This document shows positions 1 through 42,048 of a stretch of 42,048 bases of DNA, piece by piece (within the stretch, counting starts at the first letter, position 1; every line of letters begins with the position of its first letter). The position numbers were made by a program, and so were the translations under genes. The notes beneath the pieces were generated by a model. The model searched no databases. It saw nothing but the letters and a program-made list of their open reading frames with translations, and was not told the origin of the DNA. The stretch lies in NCBI GenBank assembly GCA_017882455.1, contig JADGPL010000025.1, positions 1 to 42,048 on the forward strand. The letters run 5' to 3'. The stretch is from Solirubrobacteraceae bacterium (GTDB lineage Bacteria; Actinomycetota; Thermoleophilia; Solirubrobacterales; Solirubrobacteraceae).

Positions 1-749
1 CGCTCCATCGTGCCGCTGATCTTCAGCAGCGCCGAGGCGAGCGCGCTGGGGCGTCCGGTGAGCACCGCCGAGCCGCGGTCGGCGGCGAACTCGCGGTAGC
101 GCGAGAGGGCGCGCAGCAGCAGGAAGGAGATGGCATAGACGAGCGCCGAGACCACCAGCACGGCCATGATCTCCTCCTCCTCGTTCTGGTTGCGACCATA
201 GCCCCCGCCAAAGCCCCCGCCGAAGAACAGCGCGAACTGCGCGATCATCGAAGCGAGAGTCGCGAAGAAGCTCGCGAGCGTCATCACCATCACGTCGCGG
301 TTGATCACGTGCGTGAGCTCGTGCGCCATAACGCCTTCGAGCTCCGCCGGCGAGAGCAGCTCGAGAATGCCACGGGTGGCACAGACGGTGGTCGCCTTCT
401 TCGATTTGCCCATCGCGCAGGCGTTCGGCATCGAGGTCTCGATCACGCCCACTTTCGGCTTGGGCAGATCGGCCTGCACGCACAGCCGCTCGATGATCCC
501 GTGCAGCTCGGGCTCCTGCGCGGGGGTCACCTCCTTGACCCCCATCGTCGCCAGCGCGATCTTGTCCGCACCGAAGAACTGCACCACCAGCAGCACCAGC
601 GCCACGGCCACGATCAGGCCGGCGGCTGCCCCGGCTGCGAACAGCACACCGATGAACACGACGTAGACGAGCCCGAGCAGGAACATGGTCAGCAGCATCC
701 GCGCCTGCAGGCCGGTGTCCTTGCCGAAGCTCGAGCGTCTTGCCGCCAT
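1..749 (-). CDS. htpX: Protease HtpX-type, M48 family (partial, C-terminus beyond window)
   Basis: Membrane zinc metalloprotease of the M48/HtpX family, which degrades misfolded membrane proteins. The first 249 residues are present; the gene runs off the left edge. After a short basic N-terminus there are two hydrophobic segments (about residues 17-60), then the conserved motif HELTH at residues 143-147 (H143 and H147 bind zinc, E144 is catalytic). A hydrophobic stretch with a Gly-rich FFGGGFGGGYG turn follows, then a further membrane segment. The downstream motif REFAADRGSA supplies the third zinc ligand (Glu) of the family. The family is usually 280-300 residues, so roughly 40 residues are missing. 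The ATG at 749 has no Shine-Dalgarno, but GACAAT lies 7 nt upstream, so the message may be leaderless. It is divergent from lgt. Confidence 0.95.
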   Translation of the reverse strand, partial: MAARRSSFGKDTGLQARMLLTMFLLGLVYVVFIGVLFAAGAAAGLIVAVALVLLVVQFFGADKIALATMGVKEVTPAQEPELHGIIERLCVQADLPKPKVGVIETSMPNACAMGKSKKATTVCATRGILELLSPAELEGVMAHELTHVINRDVMVMTLASFFATLASMIAQFALFFGGGFGGGYGRNQNEEEEIMAVLVVSALVYAISFLLLRALSRYREFAADRGSAVLTGRPSALASALLKISGTME

Positions 750-33872: not shown

Positions 33873-34187
33873 ATGTCCGAGACCGCAGCCGCACTCACCG
33901 AGGAAGATGTGATGGACGCCCTGTCGAACGTGATCGACCCCGAGCTGGGACTCGATTTCGTGGAGTTGGGGCTGATCTACGGCGTCGAGCTGTCCGCCGG
34001 GAACGTGAAGGTCACCTTCACACTGACCACGCCCGGGTGCCCGATCGGCCCGCAGGTCAACGAACAGATCGAAGAGTTCGTGGGCGAGCTCGAGGGCGTC
34101 AAGACGGTGGAGTCCGAAATGGTGTTCACGCCGTCATGGTCGCCGGAGATGATGAGCGAGGACGCCAAGTTCGCGCTCGGCTACTGA
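33873..34187 (+). CDS. Metal-sulfur cluster assembly factor, SufT/MIP18 (DUF59) family
   Basis: 104-residue protein of the DUF59 family, which helps mature Fe-S proteins. Hallmarks: VIDPELGLDFVELGLIYGV near the N-terminus and TTPGCPIGPQVNEQIEEFV, with the conserved reactive Cys in the PGCP loop. WSPEMMSEDAKFALGY closes the domain. The length is typical of single-domain members (SufT, PaaD-like). sufB is about 6.4 kb away at 40561-41961, and several Fe-S enzymes (GltB, GltD, IspH, Add subunits) are nearby clients in principle. TAGACT 6 nt upstream suggests a leaderless message. It is convergent with the acyltransferase, with a 7-bp gap. Confidence 0.92.
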   Translation: MSETAAALTEEDVMDALSNVIDPELGLDFVELGLIYGVELSAGNVKVTFTLTTPGCPIGPQVNEQIEEFVGELEGVKTVESEMVFTPSWSPEMMSEDAKFALGY

Positions 34188-34194
34188 GCCCAGG

Positions 34195-35610
34195 CTAGAC
34201 TGCAGCGGGAGCCGTCTCGCGGGCAAGCGAGACCAGGGTGGCGAGTTCCGCGGCGATGTTCTCCCCGATCACATCGATGTCGGGAAGCGCGTCGAAGTCG
34301 CCCAGCAATCCGAAGTTCATCTGCCCGTTGTAGGACATGATCGCGATCGCCAAGGCATGGTTTTCGGGCAGGAAGGCAACAGGGATCGCCTGGAGCATCT
34401 CGCGTCCGAGCACGTAGAGCGGGAACTGCGGACCGGGCACGTTGGTGACGATCAGGTTGAACAGTCGCGTGGAGAAGTTCAGGCGCGACGCCTGGGCGAG
34501 GATCGTCGGCGGAGCGAAGTTCTGCGCGCCGGAGATGACCTCGGCGCCGAGCGCCTGCTTTGACTCCTTCAGCCCGTCCATGGCGCTCGAGACGAACCGC
34601 AGCCGGTTGAGCGGATCTGAGATGTATACGGGCAGTGGGCCGCGCATCACCACGATGCGGTTGCCGCCCCCGTCGCGCTCGGCCTCGGTGCGCACGGACA
34701 CGGGCACGAGCGCCCGCATCTCCACACCCTCGGTTCGGCGCCCGCGCGAGATCAGAAAGGAGCGCAGGGCGCCCGCGACCACGGCGAGCACCACGTCGTT
34801 GACGGTGCCGCCAAACGCGTTCTTGACGGTCTTGAAATCGGCCAGCTGGCTCGTGACAGCCACGAAGCGCCGGTGAGGGCCGATGGGAACGTTGAGCGGC
34901 GTTTCCGGGGCGGGGTTCAGCCCCGCCCAGATGATCTCGCCGACGCCCTCGGCCGCTTCCCGCGCCCGCGTGAGAGCCCGCTCGGGGTGTGCGAGCGCAT
35001 CCATGGCCCCCTCCGCCAGGGCGACCCCCGTTCGCAGCGCCCCCGCCAGTCCCGCGGCGAGCAGGTGCGCGGTGCCCGGTTCGGAGTGGGGCTGCCAGGG
35101 GCGTCCCGAGGTGGGCAGCGGCGGGGGATCGGGTGAGAGGTCGAACAGCACGGTCGCCAGATCGACGCCGGCGATCCCATCGATCAGCGAGTGGTGGGTC
35201 TTGGTGATGAGCGCGAAGCGATTGTCCTCCAGTCCCTCGATCAGCCACATCTCCCACAGCGGCTTGGAGCGGTCGAGCTGCTGGGAGAAGATCCGCGCGG
35301 TCAGGTCCTGCAGGTCCTGCCAGCTGCCGGGGGCGGGCAGGGCGGTGTGGCGGACGTGGTACTCGAGGTTGAAGCTCGGGTCGTCGATCCAGACCGGCCG
35401 GCCGCTGTCCAGGGCGGTGTAGGCGAGCTTGTGGCGGTAGCGCGGAACGACATGCAGGCGTCTGCGGATCTGTTCCAGGAACTCGTCCATCGTCGGCGGC
35501 GGACCCTCGATGATGGTGAGGCCTCCGATGTGCATGTGTGAGACCGGACCCTCCTGATGCAGGAAGGAAGCGTCTACAGGAGTCAGCCTGTCGAGGTGGC
35601 GCTGAGGCAT
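34195..35610 (-). CDS. WS/DGAT-type wax ester/triacylglycerol synthase
   Basis: 471-residue bifunctional O-acyltransferase family protein that esterifies diacylglycerol or fatty alcohols with acyl-CoA, making storage lipid at the membrane surface. The catalytic motif HHxxxDG is intact: HHSLIDG at 139-145. Other family motifs are PLWEMWLIEGL at 117-127, GGTVNDVVLAVVAGALR in the middle and TNVPGPQFPLYVLGR near the C-terminus. It is closest to the long form (about 460 residues) common in actinobacteria. ATG 35610 has no clear Shine-Dalgarno; TACGCT ends 8 nt before it. It is divergent from ispH with a 40-bp shared promoter region. Confidence 0.93.
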   Translation of the reverse strand: MPQRHLDRLTPVDASFLHQEGPVSHMHIGGLTIIEGPPPTMDEFLEQIRRRLHVVPRYRHKLAYTALDSGRPVWIDDPSFNLEYHVRHTALPAPGSWQDLQDLTARIFSQQLDRSKPLWEMWLIEGLEDNRFALITKTHHSLIDGIAGVDLATVLFDLSPDPPPLPTSGRPWQPHSEPGTAHLLAAGLAGALRTGVALAEGAMDALAHPERALTRAREAAEGVGEIIWAGLNPAPETPLNVPIGPHRRFVAVTSQLADFKTVKNAFGGTVNDVVLAVVAGALRSFLISRGRRTEGVEMRALVPVSVRTEAERDGGGNRIVVMRGPLPVYISDPLNRLRFVSSAMDGLKESKQALGAEVISGAQNFAPPTILAQASRLNFSTRLFNLIVTNVPGPQFPLYVLGREMLQAIPVAFLPENHALAIAIMSYNGQMNFGLLGDFDALPDIDVIGENIAAELATLVSLARETAPAAV

Positions 35611-35618
35611 CAGCGCTT

Positions 35619-35643
35619 AGCGTACCTGGACGCCCCCTACAAT
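35619..35643. promoter_or_regulatory. Divergent -10 boxes for the acyltransferase and ispH
   Basis: On the minus strand TACGCT (35619-35624) ends 8 nt before ATG 35610. On the plus strand TACAAT (35638-35643) ends 7 nt before ATG 35651. The two boxes are only 13 bp apart, so their polymerase footprints must overlap and the promoters probably compete. Confidence 0.5.
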
Positions 35644-35650
35644 GACACCC

Positions 35651-36613
35651 ATGGACAATACGGTTGAGAAGCTGCTCTTGGCGGCGCCTCGTGGCTACTG
35701 CGCAGGGGTCGATCGTGCCGTGCAGACGGTCGAACGCGCCCTCGTGATCCACGGCGCGCCCGTCTACGTGCGCAAGGAGATCGTGCACAACAAGCACGTC
35801 GTCGAGCAGCTGCGCGAGCGGGGCGCGATCTTCGTCGACGAGCAGACCGAGGTGCCCGAGGGCGCCGTGTGCGTGTTCTCCGCTCACGGCATCGCGCCCA
35901 GCGTGCGTCGGGGCGCCGAGGAGCGCGGATTGCAGACGATCGACGCCACCTGCCCGCTTGTGACCAAGGTCCATCGCGAGGCCGTGCGCTTCGCCGAGGA
36001 GGGATACACGATCGTGCTCGTCGGCCACGATGGGCACGAGGAGGTCGAAGGCACGATGGGCGAGGCCCCCGATCAGATCGTGCTGGTGCAGAGCGAGGCC
36101 GATGTCGAGGACCTTCAGGTGAAGGACCCGAAGCGCATCGCCTACGTCACCCAGACGACGCTTGCCGTTGACGAAACGAGCGCGATCCTCGCCCGCCTGC
36201 GCGAGCGCTTTCCCGATATCAGGGGCCCGCGCACCGATGACATCTGCTATGCCACCACGAACCGTCAGGCGGCGGTCAAGCAGATGGCGAGCAGCTGCGA
36301 TCTGATGCTCGTGATCGGTTCGCGCAACTCCTCCAACTCGGTGCGCCTCGTGGAGGTCGCACGGGACTGCGGCACGGCGGCCCACCTGATCGACAACGCG
36401 GGCGAGGTGCAGGAGCAGTGGCTGAGCGGCGTGCGCGTGGTGGGCATCTCCTCCGGCGCGAGCGCGCCCGAGAACCTCGTCGGAGAGCTGGTCGACCTCT
36501 TCCGCTCGCGCGGCGTCAGCGATGTCTCGGAGTTCGACGTGGTGCGCGAGGACGTCCGCTTCATGCTGCCCAAGCAGATACGCGAGGCGGTCGTCGCGGG
36601 CGGGGCCTCCTGA
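35651..36613 (+). CDS. ispH: 4-hydroxy-3-methylbut-2-enyl diphosphate reductase
   Basis: Last enzyme of the MEP isoprenoid pathway, a 4Fe-4S protein that reduces HMBPP to IPP and DMAPP. It has 320 residues. The three cluster cysteines are C17 (RGYCAGV), C101 (DATCPLV) and C199 (DDICYATTNRQ). The catalytic E is in the EVEGTMGEAP loop, and SSGASAPENLV is the C-terminal substrate motif. Start: ATG 35651 lies 7 nt after the TACAAT box; ATG 35642, three codons upstream, overlaps that box and is less likely. The actual difference is three residues. It is divergent from the acyltransferase. Confidence 0.96.
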   Translation: MDNTVEKLLLAAPRGYCAGVDRAVQTVERALVIHGAPVYVRKEIVHNKHVVEQLRERGAIFVDEQTEVPEGAVCVFSAHGIAPSVRRGAEERGLQTIDATCPLVTKVHREAVRFAEEGYTIVLVGHDGHEEVEGTMGEAPDQIVLVQSEADVEDLQVKDPKRIAYVTQTTLAVDETSAILARLRERFPDIRGPRTDDICYATTNRQAAVKQMASSCDLMLVIGSRNSSNSVRLVEVARDCGTAAHLIDNAGEVQEQWLSGVRVVGISSGASAPENLVGELVDLFRSRGVSDVSEFDVVREDVRFMLPKQIREAVVAGGAS

Positions 36614-36687: not shown

Positions 36688-37857
36688 ATGCGCACGCTGA
36701 TCCTCTCCGACCTGCACCTGGGTGGCCTGTCGCGCTCGGATCTGCTGCGACGGGCTGAGCTGCGCGCGCCGCTGCTCGCGCTCGCCGCGGGCGTCGAGCG
36801 CGTCGTCCTGCTCGGCGACGTGCTCGAGCTGCGACACGGCCCCGTGCGCGACGCGATGAGCGCCGCGCGGCCGTTCTTCGAGGATCTCGGACGGGCGTTG
36901 GGCGACGGCGAGCTGATCGTGACCGCCGGCAACCACGACCATGCCCTGGTCGAACCCTGGCTGGCGGCGCGTGGAGCGGAGCTCGAGCCGCATCCGCTCG
37001 GGCTCGAGCAGCTGCTCGAGCCCGCCCAGGTCTCGCCCGCGCTGGAGCGGATCTCCACGTGGGTCGCCCCCGCGAGGATGCGCGTGGCCTACCCGGGGCT
37101 GTGGGTGCGTCCGGACGTGTATGCAACCCACGGCCACTACCTGGACTGCCATCTGACCGTGCCGACCCTCGAGCGCCTGAGCGTCGGCGTTATGAGCAGG
37201 GTGCTGGGACGCTCGGCGACCACGTTCGACTGCGTGGACGACTACGAGTCGGTGAGTGCGCCCGTGTTCGCGTGGAGGGATGCGGTCGCCAGGGACGCCC
37301 ACACCGGCGATGCCCTCAACGGGATCGCGACGGTCAGCGCCTGGCGCACCTTGGGGGGCGGCCACAACGGCTCCACCGGCCCCGTCCGCCGCTTCGATCG
37401 CGCCGCGGTTCTGCGTGGGCTGCGCAGTCGCGCTCTCATCGCCGGCTTCCCTGTGGCCGTCGCCGCGCTCAACCGCGCCGGGCTGGGGCCGCTCCGTGCC
37501 GAGGTCTCTACGAGCGAGCTTCGTCGAGCCGGACTGCGCGCCATGGGCGAGGTGGCCGCACGGCTCGGCCTCGGCGACTCCTACGTGGTCTTCGGGCACA
37601 CCCATCGCACGGGCCCGCTACCGGGCGATGAGCAGCAGGAGTGGCGCGGCAGGGACGGGGCGCGCTTGGTCAATGCCGGCAGCTGGACCTATGCCTCGAT
37701 CTTCTTGACTTCAGCCGCGGGCGAGAGCCCTTACTGGCCCGGCGGATGCGTCCTCGTCGAGGACGACGGGCCGCCGGTGGTGCTGCGGCTCCTTCAAGAG
37801 CGCACGCGTGAGGAGATCCGCCCGCCGCGCCAAGCGCCAACACCTGCCGCCGGCTGA
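36688..37857 (+). CDS. Calcineurin-like metallophosphoesterase
   Basis: 389-residue protein with all motifs of the dinuclear metal phosphoesterase family: SDLHLGG (D8, H10), LLGDVLEL, AGNHDHALV, THGHYLD and VFGHTHR. The body contains an insertion of about 110 residues (about 175-285) between the GH and GHTH motifs. There is no signal peptide, so it acts in the cytoplasm. It is broadly like UDP-2,3-diacylglucosamine-type or Ser/Thr phosphatase-like members; the substrate cannot be told. It starts 74 bp after ispH. No clear Shine-Dalgarno or -10 box lies before ATG 36688, so it may be read through from ispH. Confidence 0.88.
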   Translation: MRTLILSDLHLGGLSRSDLLRRAELRAPLLALAAGVERVVLLGDVLELRHGPVRDAMSAARPFFEDLGRALGDGELIVTAGNHDHALVEPWLAARGAELEPHPLGLEQLLEPAQVSPALERISTWVAPARMRVAYPGLWVRPDVYATHGHYLDCHLTVPTLERLSVGVMSRVLGRSATTFDCVDDYESVSAPVFAWRDAVARDAHTGDALNGIATVSAWRTLGGGHNGSTGPVRRFDRAAVLRGLRSRALIAGFPVAVAALNRAGLGPLRAEVSTSELRRAGLRAMGEVAARLGLGDSYVVFGHTHRTGPLPGDEQQEWRGRDGARLVNAGSWTYASIFLTSAAGESPYWPGGCVLVEDDGPPVVLRLLQERTREEIRPPRQAPTPAAG

Positions 37858-37979: not shown

Positions 37980-39680
37980 GTGCTCGGAGGACACCGCCAC
38001 AAGCTCTGCCTGACGGCTGCTCTCACGGCGCTCGGCTTGGCGGGCTTTGGTCAGAGTGCCGCCGCGGCCGAACCGCCGAGCTTCAACATGATGGGCGTCT
38101 GGACGACGGGATACCTCTCAGGGAGCACTCGCGAAGCGGCCAACGGCAGCTATGACATCACGGCTATGAACATGGCCACAGGTGCTCTCTCGGGGACGGC
38201 GGAAACCTCAGGTGTGCACTTCGCCCTCGAAGGCCTCGAGAGCGGGTCCGTTGCCCAGATCAAGCTCACCGAGGGCAGCTACACGGCCTACGACACCCTG
38301 CACCTCTCCGTCCTCGCCAGCGGGCATGTGGGGGGCAACGGGACCTTCAACTCGGCTGGATTCAGCGAAACGGGCGCGGGGTATTGGGCCGAACAGAACG
38401 GGGCGAGCGCCTCCGAAGAAGCCGCCATGAAGGCCAAGGAAGCCGAAGGGGAAAAGCGCCCCACCGGCACGAGCATCATCTGCAATTACGAATTCGCGAC
38501 CTCGGAGAACACGTGTGTTGCCTCCGTCGGCGATGGGGGCGCACCCCCGTCGGTGGCGCCGACGGGCACCGTCACCTTCACCACCACCAGCGGCGCCTTC
38601 TCCAGCGGTGCCAGCTGCTCGATCACGCCGACGCCGTCATCGCCCTCCGTGTCGAGCTGCTCGCTCGTGTACTTCACCACCACGAGCGGCCTGCCCTCGA
38701 TCACAGTCACCTACGGCGGCGATGCCCGCCATGCCCCGAGCAGCGGGAAGACGCAGTTCCTCGGGCTCGGCACAGAAGGCACCTACGAATCTCCTACCGG
38801 CCCCGCCGGGCAGTACCCCAACGAAGTCACGATCGAAACCGAAGCGCCCGTCGCCGGCACCACCGTCGAAGGCAGCGCGCAGGGCCCTGACCCGCATCCG
38901 ATCCCGGTGCCAATCGTGCTCCCGGGTGTTTCCTCCTCGCTCGATCCGACCTCGGCGGCCGACCTGCGGATCGCGGAGGCGCTCGCGACCGCGGTGGACG
39001 TGAGCGGCCCTCAGGACACGGCGAAGCTGACCGAACTCGATCAGAGCGTCGAACGGCTCGACGCCCGGGCGGTGGAACTGACGAAGAGCCCGAATGCGGC
39101 CGAACAGGCAGAGGCCCAGAAGCTCGTCAAAGACGCCACCGCCCTGATGGAATCGATCACGAGGATGGACAAGATCCAAGGGGAATACGCCAAGGATGCG
39201 CTCGAAGGATCGCGCACGGCTGAAAGCGCCGAGAGCAGCATCGAGAAGCTCGACGGGCAGGCCGTCGAACTGCTGAAGAAGCCGGACCCTGCCGACCAGG
39301 CCAAGGGTCAGGCGCTCCTGAACGAAGCCACGCAGACGCTCGAAGCGCTCCTGAAGGCCACCAAGCTGAAGGGGGAAACGCTCAAGAAGGTGATCGGCAA
39401 TGCCAGCACGGCGGCCGCCCATCGGCGGCTGCAGCGGATCCGCACGCGGCGGGTGCGCGCGCTGGGCCACGTGACCATGCGCAATGTCGCCGCCGGCAAG
39501 TTGAAGTTGAAGCTGCGCCTGAATCGCGCTGAGCTGAACAGGCTCGCCGGCAGGCGCTCCAGCGTGACCGTCTACGTGCACGTCAGCATGATCCTGCCCA
39601 GCAGGCTCATACCGGGAGGCATGCCGCGCTCCTTCGCGCTGCCCGTCACGATCAGGCGCGCCCCCAAGCACAGGCGATAG
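37980..39680 (+). CDS. Secreted protein with Ig-like domain and helical tandem repeat
   Basis: 566-residue exported protein. A signal peptide (residues 1-30, cleavage likely after AAAA) is followed by a beta-rich domain (about 33-135) and a bacterial Ig-like domain (about 161-262), with PTGTVTF and ITVTYGGDARHAPSSG typical of the Big_3 type. There is a Pro-rich linker (about 285-325). A duplicated helical, coiled-coil-like unit begins at 356 and 420: SVERLDARAVELTKSP and SIEKLDGQAVELLKKP. The last 90 residues are strongly basic. Start GTG 37980. Glu codons are mostly GAA (about 12 of 16 in the repeat), unlike the GAG-rich neighbours, which hints at transfer. A cell-surface role is inferred; the function is unknown. 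Confidence 0.8.
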   Translation: MLGGHRHKLCLTAALTALGLAGFGQSAAAAEPPSFNMMGVWTTGYLSGSTREAANGSYDITAMNMATGALSGTAETSGVHFALEGLESGSVAQIKLTEGSYTAYDTLHLSVLASGHVGGNGTFNSAGFSETGAGYWAEQNGASASEEAAMKAKEAEGEKRPTGTSIICNYEFATSENTCVASVGDGGAPPSVAPTGTVTFTTTSGAFSSGASCSITPTPSSPSVSSCSLVYFTTTSGLPSITVTYGGDARHAPSSGKTQFLGLGTEGTYESPTGPAGQYPNEVTIETEAPVAGTTVEGSAQGPDPHPIPVPIVLPGVSSSLDPTSAADLRIAEALATAVDVSGPQDTAKLTELDQSVERLDARAVELTKSPNAAEQAEAQKLVKDATALMESITRMDKIQGEYAKDALEGSRTAESAESSIEKLDGQAVELLKKPDPADQAKGQALLNEATQTLEALLKATKLKGETLKKVIGNASTAAAHRRLQRIRTRRVRALGHVTMRNVAAGKLKLKLRLNRAELNRLAGRRSSVTVYVHVSMILPSRLIPGGMPRSFALPVTIRRAPKHRR

Positions 39681-39681
39681 G

Positions 39682-39703
39682 GCGCGGCGCCAGGGGGCCG
39701 CGC
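39682..39703 (+). terminator. Possible terminator hairpin after the Ig-like gene
   Basis: GCGCGGC (39682-39688) and GCCGCGC (39697-39703) give a 7-bp stem with an 8-nt loop, starting 2 bp after the stop codon, between convergent genes. There is no T-run. Confidence 0.4.
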
Positions 39704-39746
39704 GTCCCGGCGCAGCAGTGCCTGTGTGGGCGCGGGTCAGATCAGA

Positions 39747-40514
39747 TCAGGCCAGCCCGGGCGTGAAGCACGTCGCCAGGCAGCGCACGCCATCGCCGAG
39801 CTCGAGCTCGAGCACGGCCTCGGTGTGGCGATCGTGCTCGATCAGGCTGTAGGCGCCCGGGTGGCTCACCTCGAGGACCGATCCGCCCGCGTCGGGGCCG
39901 CCGTTGACGAGCACCCTGCCCCGGCCCTCCAGCACCGCCCACACGCCGCCCGCCGCGTACGGTCCGCGGTAGGCGCCCTGCTGATCGGCCGTCTGCGCCT
40001 GCAGCCGGACGTCCGGGGCGTCCTCCGCGCGTACAGGGCCGAGCGGCTCGCGCTCGACGTCGAGCAGCTCTTGCACGGCGAGCTCCGTCTCGAGGTAGGC
40101 CCCCTCGCCGTAGTGGTAGTCGAACAGCCGAGCCCGCCCGTCGAAGAGATAGCGCGCCGGCCAGCCCTCGTTGCCGTAGTCCTGCCAGACCTCGAGCTCG
40201 CTGTCGATCAGCACCGGATACTCGATACCCAGGCGCGCCACCGCATCCCTCACGGCCTGCTCGTCGTGCGAAGCCTCGAAGCCGGGGCAGTGCACGCCGA
40301 TCACGCGCAGGCCCAGCGGCGCGTAGCGCTCGTGCCAGGCCTTTACGTAGGGCAGCGTCCGCAATGAGTTGGGCCTGCAGAAGTCCCAGAACTCCACCAG
40401 CATCGGCCTACCGCGCTGGATGATGCTCGCCTGGCCGCTGCTTCCCGTGACGTTCACCCACGGCAAAGACCGCGGGAACAGCGGAGCAGCGATCGTGTCA
40501 ACAGGCGCGCGCAT
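39747..40514 (-). CDS. Thioredoxin-fold protein (TlpA/DipZ-C-like) with degenerate active site
   Basis: 255-residue protein. The thioredoxin domain (about 15-145) resembles the DipZ/TlpA type: LVEFWDFCRPNSLRTLPYVKAW, RVIGVHCPGFE, VLIDSELEVWQDYG and the cis-Pro loop GWPARYLFD. The usual CxxC is replaced by C46-R-P-N49, so the resolving Cys is missing at its normal place; C76 in GVHCPGFE might substitute. A C-terminal beta-rich domain (about 165-255) with GRGRVLVNGG and a CLATC end resembles the extra domain of DipZ-type proteins. No signal peptide is visible. It lies 46 bp downstream of sufB on the same strand, so probably co-transcribed. A role in Fe-S or redox biology is inference. Confidence 0.8.
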   Translation of the reverse strand: MRAPVDTIAAPLFPRSLPWVNVTGSSGQASIIQRGRPMLVEFWDFCRPNSLRTLPYVKAWHERYAPLGLRVIGVHCPGFEASHDEQAVRDAVARLGIEYPVLIDSELEVWQDYGNEGWPARYLFDGRARLFDYHYGEGAYLETELAVQELLDVEREPLGPVRAEDAPDVRLQAQTADQQGAYRGPYAAGGVWAVLEGRGRVLVNGGPDAGGSVLEVSHPGAYSLIEHDRHTEAVLELELGDGVRCLATCFTPGLA

Positions 40515-40560
40515 TCTGAGGTGCGATGGCCGGCGCCTGCCTGCGTCCTCGGTCGCTCGC

Positions 40561-41961
<1,401 letters not shown>

Positions 41962-42011
41962 GGGGCTCCTCGCTGGCGGGTCGCTTGCGAATCCTGTGCG
42001 CTGAGGTAGGA

Positions 42012-42017
42012 ATTGTA
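42012..42017 (-). promoter_or_regulatory. Probable -10 element of sufB
   Basis: On the minus strand TACAAT lies about 50 bp before the sufB ATG, giving a leader of about 43 nt with a GAGGAG ribosome binding site. The -35 (CCGGTT at 17-nt spacing) is poor. The presence of a promoter here suggests sufB heads its own transcript. Confidence 0.4.
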
Positions 42018-42048
42018 TCGGGCCGCGGGCGCGTAACCGGAGCGGCGA

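What the first reader, a model, noticed from the sequence alone, without database searches (positions are those of the whole stretch)
39747..40514. Thioredoxin-fold protein with CRPN instead of CxxC, next to sufB
The fold markers are intact, but the active site reads C46-R-P-N49, and C76 appears in GVHCPGFE, where I would expect a non-Cys residue in relatives. A single-Cys thioredoxin downstream of sufB could act as a sulfur or persulfide carrier, or an Fe-S-related chaperone, rather than a disulfide reductase.
Basis: partly seen in the sequence, partly recalled or inferred. Interest (0 to 1): 0.5.

Follow-up and report, generated by a model that had tools for sequence, protein, structure and literature searches.

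The report
Redox-dead thioredoxin relative beside sufB
This soil-bacterium gene encodes a relative of the disulfide-handling protein DipZ that lacks both catalytic cysteines and carries other conserved residues in their place, so it is probably a binding protein rather than a thioredoxin; its place next to the iron-sulfur gene sufB is real but not shared by many of its relatives.

Summary
The ORF, its fold and its place 46 nt downstream of sufB are real. The reading of CRPN as the active site is a one-residue misalignment: in DipZ, its closest solved relative, SCINC aligns with CRPNS. The catalytic pair therefore falls on R47 and S50, and C46 is the residue before it. Of 110 aligned orthologues none has Cys at 47, two have Cys at 50, none has CxxC. 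C46 is conserved only in the window's family (70 of 76; 0 of 34 elsewhere). C76 is Cys in 20 of 110.

The model matches the whole DipZ ectodomain, thioredoxin plus carbohydrate-binding-like domain (Z 24.5, 242 residues), without a membrane part. The genome keeps a separate DipZ with CINC. The orthologues form one well-supported clade, seen only in this order among the loci read. They share new residues where the redox site was (D44, R47/Q, S50, G117), which speaks against decay.

suf genes lie near in 39 of 87 neighbourhoods, and this does not track C46, which argues against a C46 sulfur carrier. IspH is the steadier neighbour (79 of 87). Most likely this is a cytoplasmic, redox-inactive DipZ paralogue acting as a client- or ligand-binding module; the ligand is unknown.

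The parts
39747..40514 (-). stand-alone redox-dead DipZ-ectodomain-like protein, 255 aa (thioredoxin-like domain about residues 1-155, carbohydrate-binding-like beta domain about 180-255)
40365..40376 (-). codons R47-P48-N49-S50, the true position of the CxxC motif (Cys1 = R47, Cys2 = S50)
   Evidence: alignments; codon positions
40377..40379 (-). codon of C46, one residue before the canonical Cys1; Cys in 70 of 76 family f1 rows, 0 of 34 others
40383..40385 (-). codon of D44; D or E in 110 of 110 clade rows, T in 29 of 30 DipZ-like rows
40287..40289 (-). codon of C76; Cys in 20 of 110 rows
40158..40166 (-). codons G117-W118-P119, the loop up to the invariant proline (cis-Pro position); residue 117 is Y in 29 of 30 DipZ-like rows
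   Evidence: that this Pro is cis is recalled from thioredoxins in general
40561..41961 (-). sufB (type A of two SufB types seen in this order)
35642..36613 (+). ispH (LytB); most steadily kept neighbour. That IspH is an iron-sulfur enzyme is recalled
36688..37857 (+). calcineurin-like phosphoesterase; neighbour in 55 of 58 family f1 loci, 0 of 29 others
33873..34187 (+). SufT-like gene, assigned by clustering with L139:3317-3631 (Pfam FeS_assembly_P)
34195..35610 (-). wax ester synthase/diacylglycerol acyltransferase-like gene, kept neighbour (61 of 87 loci)

Best explanation
It is a membrane-free, probably cytoplasmic paralogue of the DipZ ectodomain (thioredoxin-like domain plus carbohydrate-binding-like domain). 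Its clade lacks both catalytic cysteines, and the old active site carries other conserved residues (D44, R47 or Q, N49, S50, R52, G117-W118-P119). Most likely the rebuilt groove binds a client peptide or a small, perhaps anionic, ligand without thiol chemistry. Shown: identity, fold, absence of CxxC in all 110 aligned rows, conserved replacement residues, no N-terminal hydrophobic segment, coexistence with a CINC DipZ. Inferred: loss of the cysteines before the families diverged, cytoplasmic location, the binding role. Unknown: the ligand, and whether the iron-sulfur neighbourhood (SUF, IspH, SufT) reflects function.
For: Fold and domain order match the DipZ ectodomain over model residues 1-251 (Z 24.5, 242 aligned, 2.5 A); profile match to 2hyx over both domains (1.4e-44). 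No row of 110 has Cys at 47 and two have it at 50. The 110 rows separate from 20 DipZ-like rows with SH-aLRT 100 (quick method). Clade-specific residues replace DipZ ones at the site: D/E44 110 of 110 (DipZ T 29 of 30), S50 104 of 110 (DipZ C 23, W 7 of 30), R47 88 plus Q47 16 of 110 (DipZ C 30 of 30), G117 109 of 110 (DipZ Y 29 of 30). W19 and P119 are invariant, so the scaffold is kept. The first 45 residues of the 110 rows hold no hydrophobic stretch (highest 19-mer mean hydropathy 1.21). The own genome keeps a separate DipZ with DsbD_TM, AhpC-TSA and Thioredoxin_10 domains and CINC. Best match at E <= 1e-60 in 126 of 146 genomes of the window's family, my count from the table.
Against: No ligand or partner is known, and no coordinates were returned to see whether D44, R47 and S50 face one pocket. 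C46 is nearly fixed in family f1, so a thiol role in that family is not excluded. The gene is not universal: 20 of 146 family genomes lack a match at 1e-60 and 8 of these, among them G153 of the window's own genus (97% complete) and G072 (98%), have none at 1e-10. The dN/dS estimate was uninformative: median 0.62 over 5327 pairs with dS under 1.2, probably saturated in this GC-rich DNA; it does not show strong purifying selection.
Confidence: 0.55

Rival explanations
1. A single-cysteine sulfur or persulfide carrier for SUF, with C46 as the carrier thiol.
For: sufB lies upstream on the same strand in 12 of 13 loci of the window's genus that have 5 kb upstream; C46 is Cys in all 19 aligned rows of that genus and in 70 of 76 of the family; S. 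aureus thioredoxin-like TrxP and TrxQ reduce protein persulfides (PMC6196236, start of abstract in the listing).
Against: C46 is absent in 34 of 34 aligned orthologues of families f2, f3 and f4, and 22 such loci are suf-linked; 36 loci have C46 without suf linkage; C46 is not the catalytic position.
Confidence: 0.08
2. A chaperone or adaptor for IspH or for iron-sulfur delivery, without a role for cysteine.
For: IspH lies downstream and convergent in 79 of 87 loci; sufB, sufD, sufS or sufU lies within 7.2 kb in 39 of 87; a SufT-like gene within 7.2 kb in 33 of 87 (sums of the group rows).
Against: Neighbours without a known iron-sulfur link are kept too, such as the wax ester synthase-like gene (61 of 87), so common descent may explain the order; IspH is convergent and cannot share an operon; suf is 0.4 Mb or more away in 11 of 12 single-contig genomes (10 of the 12 are from family f1).
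Confidence: 0.15
3. A new enzyme: the D44/R47/S50 site has turned into a non-thiol catalytic centre.
For: Conserved polar residues replace the redox pair across the order, and the second domain also carries clade-specific residues (R162, D165, G189, G220, H227, where 25 to 28 DipZ-like rows have letters at those columns).
Against: R47 is Q in 16 of 19 rows of family f2, unusual for a catalytic Arg. The fold and profile lists are headed by thiol oxidoreductase relatives and suggested no such enzyme, but I did not check each row.
Confidence: 0.15
4. A redox switch using a non-canonical disulfide such as C46-C76, or C46 with C245/C249 of the second domain.
For: C46 and C249 occur together in 58 of 76 family f1 rows.
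Against: C76 is Cys in 20 of 110 rows; C46 and C249 show no independent co-change on the tree (4 pairs on starred branches, too few to reach 0.05; sign test median p 1). Distances could not be measured.
Confidence: 0.07

Closest known systems
DipZ (Rv2874) C-terminal ectodomain of Mycobacterium tuberculosis, PDB 2HYX/5CYY
   Same: Both domains in the same order and arrangement (Z 24.5 over model 1..251); sequence match 3e-25.
   Different: DipZ has CINC and, from recall, a CcdA-like membrane part; this protein has RPNS at that place and no hydrophobic segment.
DipZ paralogue of the same genome (L156:6527-8344)
   Same: About 40% identical in the thioredoxin domain.
   Different: Keeps CINC, DsbD_TM and a full Thioredoxin_10 domain (98.8 bits); the window protein gives PF17991 only 14.8 bits, below its cut-off of 27.1.
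SOQ1 and NHLRC2 thioredoxin-like domains
   Same: Next best solved relatives. SOQ1 (7djj) reads CCINC in the alignment, so a Cys before Cys1 is not unique to this clade.
   Different: SOQ1 keeps the CxxC pair; for NHLRC2 this is recalled, its alignment was not printed. By their entry titles they carry NHL or other domains.
DipZ-like thioredoxin domains fused to GH126 in Clostridium butyricum
   Same: Said to be modelled on DipZ and to have no correspondence to its Cys-Ile-Asn-Cys motif (PMC7479077, passages read).
   Different: Fused to a glycoside hydrolase; not compared with this clade here.

Membership tests
Thioredoxin superfamily fold | thioredoxin fold | tested here: met
Thioredoxin / TlpA-ResA type thiol oxidoreductase | CxxC active-site motif | tested here: not met
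   0 of 110 rows have CxxC; the Cys1 position is R47
DipZ (CcdA-fused) family | two-domain ectodomain, thioredoxin-like plus carbohydrate-binding-like | tested here: met
DipZ (CcdA-fused) family | N-terminal membrane electron-transfer domain | tested here: not met
   255-aa protein without hydrophobic segment; the genome's own DipZ has DsbD_TM
DipZ (CcdA-fused) family | CxxC in the ectodomain | tested here: not met
   7 of 30 DipZ-like rows have CxxW instead, so this feature is not strict
Pfam AhpC-TSA (PF00578) / Redoxin (PF08534) | score above the gathering cut-off | tested here: not met
   24.7 of 26 and 23.9 of 26.6 bits for the window protein; at E <= 0.001, 61 and 35 of 110 members match
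SUF system component | conserved operon with suf genes | tested here: not met
   direct adjacency in the window's genus; suf within 7.2 kb in 39 of 87; 0.4 Mb or more away in 11 of 12 single-contig genomes
Sulfur/persulfide carrier | conserved acceptor cysteine | tested here: inconclusive
   not conserved in the clade: C46 absent in 34 of 34 rows of f2-f4, C76 in 20 of 110; but C46 is Cys in 70 of 76 rows of the window's family
Sulfur/persulfide carrier | persulfide transfer activity | not testable with these tools
   needs biochemistry
Carbohydrate-binding module | binds glycans | not testable with these tools
   fold only; two of 110 members match CE2_N

The most novel reading that the evidence does not exclude
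The ectodomain of a membrane disulfide carrier was brought into the cytoplasm of an ancestor of this order, lost both catalytic cysteines and gained a new conserved non-thiol site (D44-x-x-[RQ]47-x-N-S50-x-R52 with G117-W118-P119), making a new ligand-binding or enzymatic protein class that is widespread in the order and sits in an iron-sulfur gene neighbourhood.
Probability: 0.35. Interest if true: 0.55.

Novelty: new variant of a known kind. Interest (0 to 1): 0.4.

Why it matters
Thioredoxin-fold proteins that lack both cysteines and stay conserved are useful cases of how a redox fold becomes a binding or catalytic fold. Here the absence is clade-wide, the replacement residues are conserved, and an active relative sits in the same genome, so the change can be tested by comparing the two. 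It also warns that a single-Cys call read by eye near a thioredoxin site can be off by one residue.

Tried and rejected
CRPN as a monothiol active site: rejected, see alignments. C46-C76 distance: not measurable, the structure tool returned no coordinates. C46-C249 pairing: 58 of 76 f1 rows have both, but there is no independent co-change, and too few pairs to test it well. dN/dS by a simple counting method: uninformative, dS probably saturated. Promoter and terminator scan of 39600-42048: one promoter-like site, inside sufB, and no terminator-like site on the minus strand; no conclusion drawn. Plasmid collection: 197 records match, all under 60% identity; the one I read, in Arthrobacter, has CINC. 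Literature: searches listed no paper whose title or abstract start describes this family; only openly licensed PMC papers are held and I read passages of three (PMC6544083, PMC7479077, PMC3961690). PMC6544083 names thioredoxin twice, both for thioredoxin-disulfide reductase. The Goldstone 2016 DipZ paper is not held and is known here only through PMC7479077.

Rows dropped before counts: one search took 163 loci with a match to 129 distinct protein rows. The 110-row alignment A1 leaves out nine CxxC relatives (L028-L036), six DipZ-like (L155-L160), two partial (L023, L154), L084 and L123 (by choice) and L161 (the window itself, entered as window). Neighbourhood counts use the 87 loci with at least 5 kb upstream; the 93 also take shorter loci if linked. 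One of the suf-linked f4 loci (L130) has sufB on the opposite strand. Outside the order only loci handed out were read: 9 in the class and 17 of the matches in 64 phylum genomes.

Full report
Observation. The ORF is at 39747-40514 on the minus strand, 255 aa. It starts with ATG, ends with TGA, and lies 46 nt after the sufB stop on the same strand. The upstream gene is SufB by TIGR01980 (651 bits, cut-off 346). The letters C46-R-P-N49 and C76 are present.

The motif is misaligned by one residue in the finding. phmmer against the PDB gives the DipZ ectodomain of M. tuberculosis first (2hyx, 3e-25), then SOQ1 and NHLRC2. In that alignment 'waySCINCqraip' of DipZ lies over 'wdfCRPNSlrtlp'. Cys1 is therefore R47, Cys2 is S50, and C46 is the residue before the pair. 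In L194 and L202, DipZ-like proteins of another family of the phylum, an in-frame TGA stands exactly at the Cys1 place, which marks the same column.

Fold. AlphaFold2 on the 110-row alignment gave pLDDT 95 and pTM 0.91. VIA-align puts DipZ first with Z 24.5, 242 residues, 2.5 A, model range 1..251, so both the thioredoxin-like and the carbohydrate-binding-like domain match in one arrangement. The profile finds 2hyx at 1.4e-44 over both domains. Pfam scores stay just under the cut-offs for AhpC-TSA and Redoxin.

Conservation. In 110 orthologues from four families of the order, no row has Cys at 47, two have it at 50 (L019, L144), and none has CxxC. R47 is R in 88 and Q in 16; S50 is S in 104. 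C46 is Cys in 70 of 76 rows of the window's family f1 and in 0 of 34 rows of f2, f3 and f4. C76 is Cys in 20 of 110, C249 in 60 of 76 f1 rows and 0 of 34 others. Family f4 averages 0.46 Cys per protein. Against up to 30 DipZ-like rows, the clade has its own conserved residues at the site: D/E44 (DipZ T), R/Q47 (C), S50 (C or W), G117 (Y), and in the second domain R162, D165, G189, G220 and H227. I read this as replacement, not decay. A dN/dS estimate was uninformative.

Phylogeny and range. The 110 rows separate from 20 DipZ-like rows with SH-aLRT 100 (quick method, trait columns masked). In the order, 224 of 232 genomes match at 1e-10, DipZ paralogues included. Within f1, 126 of 146 have a best match at 1e-60 or better; of the other 20, eight have none at 1e-10, among them G153 of the window's genus at 97% completeness (my counts). 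Outside the order the loci read keep a Cys or a TGA at the Cys1 place: 9 of 9 loci of the class (fetched, read) and 17 of 17 phylum loci, drawn from 64 non-order genomes with a match (fetched, read); the other matches were not read. A pattern scan of 84,980 species genomes, which finds close relatives only, gave 31 loci: 22 without CxxC, titled Solirubrobacterales, Solirubrobacteraceae, Conexibacter or unclassified actinobacteria, and 9 with CxxC in Pseudomonadota and other phyla.

Own genome. A second copy (L156) keeps CINC and has DsbD_TM, AhpC-TSA and Thioredoxin_10 domains. The window protein has no hydrophobic segment, and the first 45 residues of the 110 rows have none, so I infer that it is cytoplasmic.

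Neighbourhood. Of 87 loci with at least 5 kb upstream, sufB, sufD, sufS or sufU lies within 7.2 kb in 39: 12 of 13 in the window's genus, 5 of 45 in the rest of f1, 6 of 9 in f4, 2 of 2 in f3, 14 of 18 in f2. IspH lies downstream and convergent in 79 of 87. In 12 single-contig genomes (10 of f1, one each of f2 and f4, none of the window's genus), sufB is 5 kb away in one and 0.4 Mb or more in 11, though the gene is present in all 12. suf linkage does not go with C46: 23 linked with, 22 linked without, 36 unlinked with, 12 unlinked without. Each of 28 genomes searched for sufB has one hit over the cut-off, and the 16 hits typed fall into two types 50-58% identical.

Mechanism. The clade kept the fold and the proline loop, lacks both catalytic cysteines and holds other polar residues there. 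The simplest reading is a non-redox binding module: an Arg or Gln at the helix start suits an anion or a peptide carbonyl, and the proline loop is where thioredoxins hold substrate backbones (recalled, not tested). A sulfur carrier would need a conserved cysteine, which the clade as a whole lacks. An iron-sulfur role remains possible through IspH or SUF, but gene order alone is weak evidence here because other neighbours are kept as well. A thiol role special to f1 through C46 is not excluded.

Verdict. New variant of a known kind: a redox-dead, membrane-free DipZ-ectodomain paralogue. Interest is moderate.

Noticed in passing
L194 (G487) and L202 (G580); also G499, G561, G639: In phylum family f29, DipZ-like proteins have one in-frame TGA (5 of 5 f29 genomes listed); in the two read it stands exactly at catalytic Cys1 (WTYS*INC, WTYT*INC), a probable selenocysteine. 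The five genomes have SelB over the family cut-off; the window's genome does not. No SECIS test was made.
   Followed up: partly
window 40561-41961 and L203-L218: Two SufB types 50-58% identical occur in this order, with one sufB over the cut-off per genome in 28 of 28 searched. Type A lies near the thioredoxin-like gene in the 11 genomes typed as A; type B is on another contig in the three f1 genomes typed as B but within 7.2 kb in 12 f2 loci.
   Followed up: partly
L155, L168, L174, L188, L190, L191, L195: DipZ-like proteins with CxNW: the second catalytic Cys replaced by Trp (7 of 30 DipZ-like rows; motifs read).
   Followed up: no
L135-L153 (family f2), column of residue 115: 17 of 19 f2 orthologues have a Cys two residues before the G117-W118-P119 loop, absent in the rows of the other families.
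   Followed up: no
window 37980-39680 (+): A 566-aa protein with a weak Ig-like hit (Big_3_5, below its cut-off) sits between the gene and the phosphoesterase; not seen in the 13 other neighbourhoods printed.
   Followed up: no
near the gene in f1 loci outside the window's genus (for example L081, L111): ThiF-rhodanese (33 of 45), ThiS-like (24 of 45) and PALP-type, perhaps cysteine synthase, genes (15 of 45) lie within 7.2 kb, a likely sulfur-transfer cluster on the upstream side, where other families have suf.
   Followed up: partly
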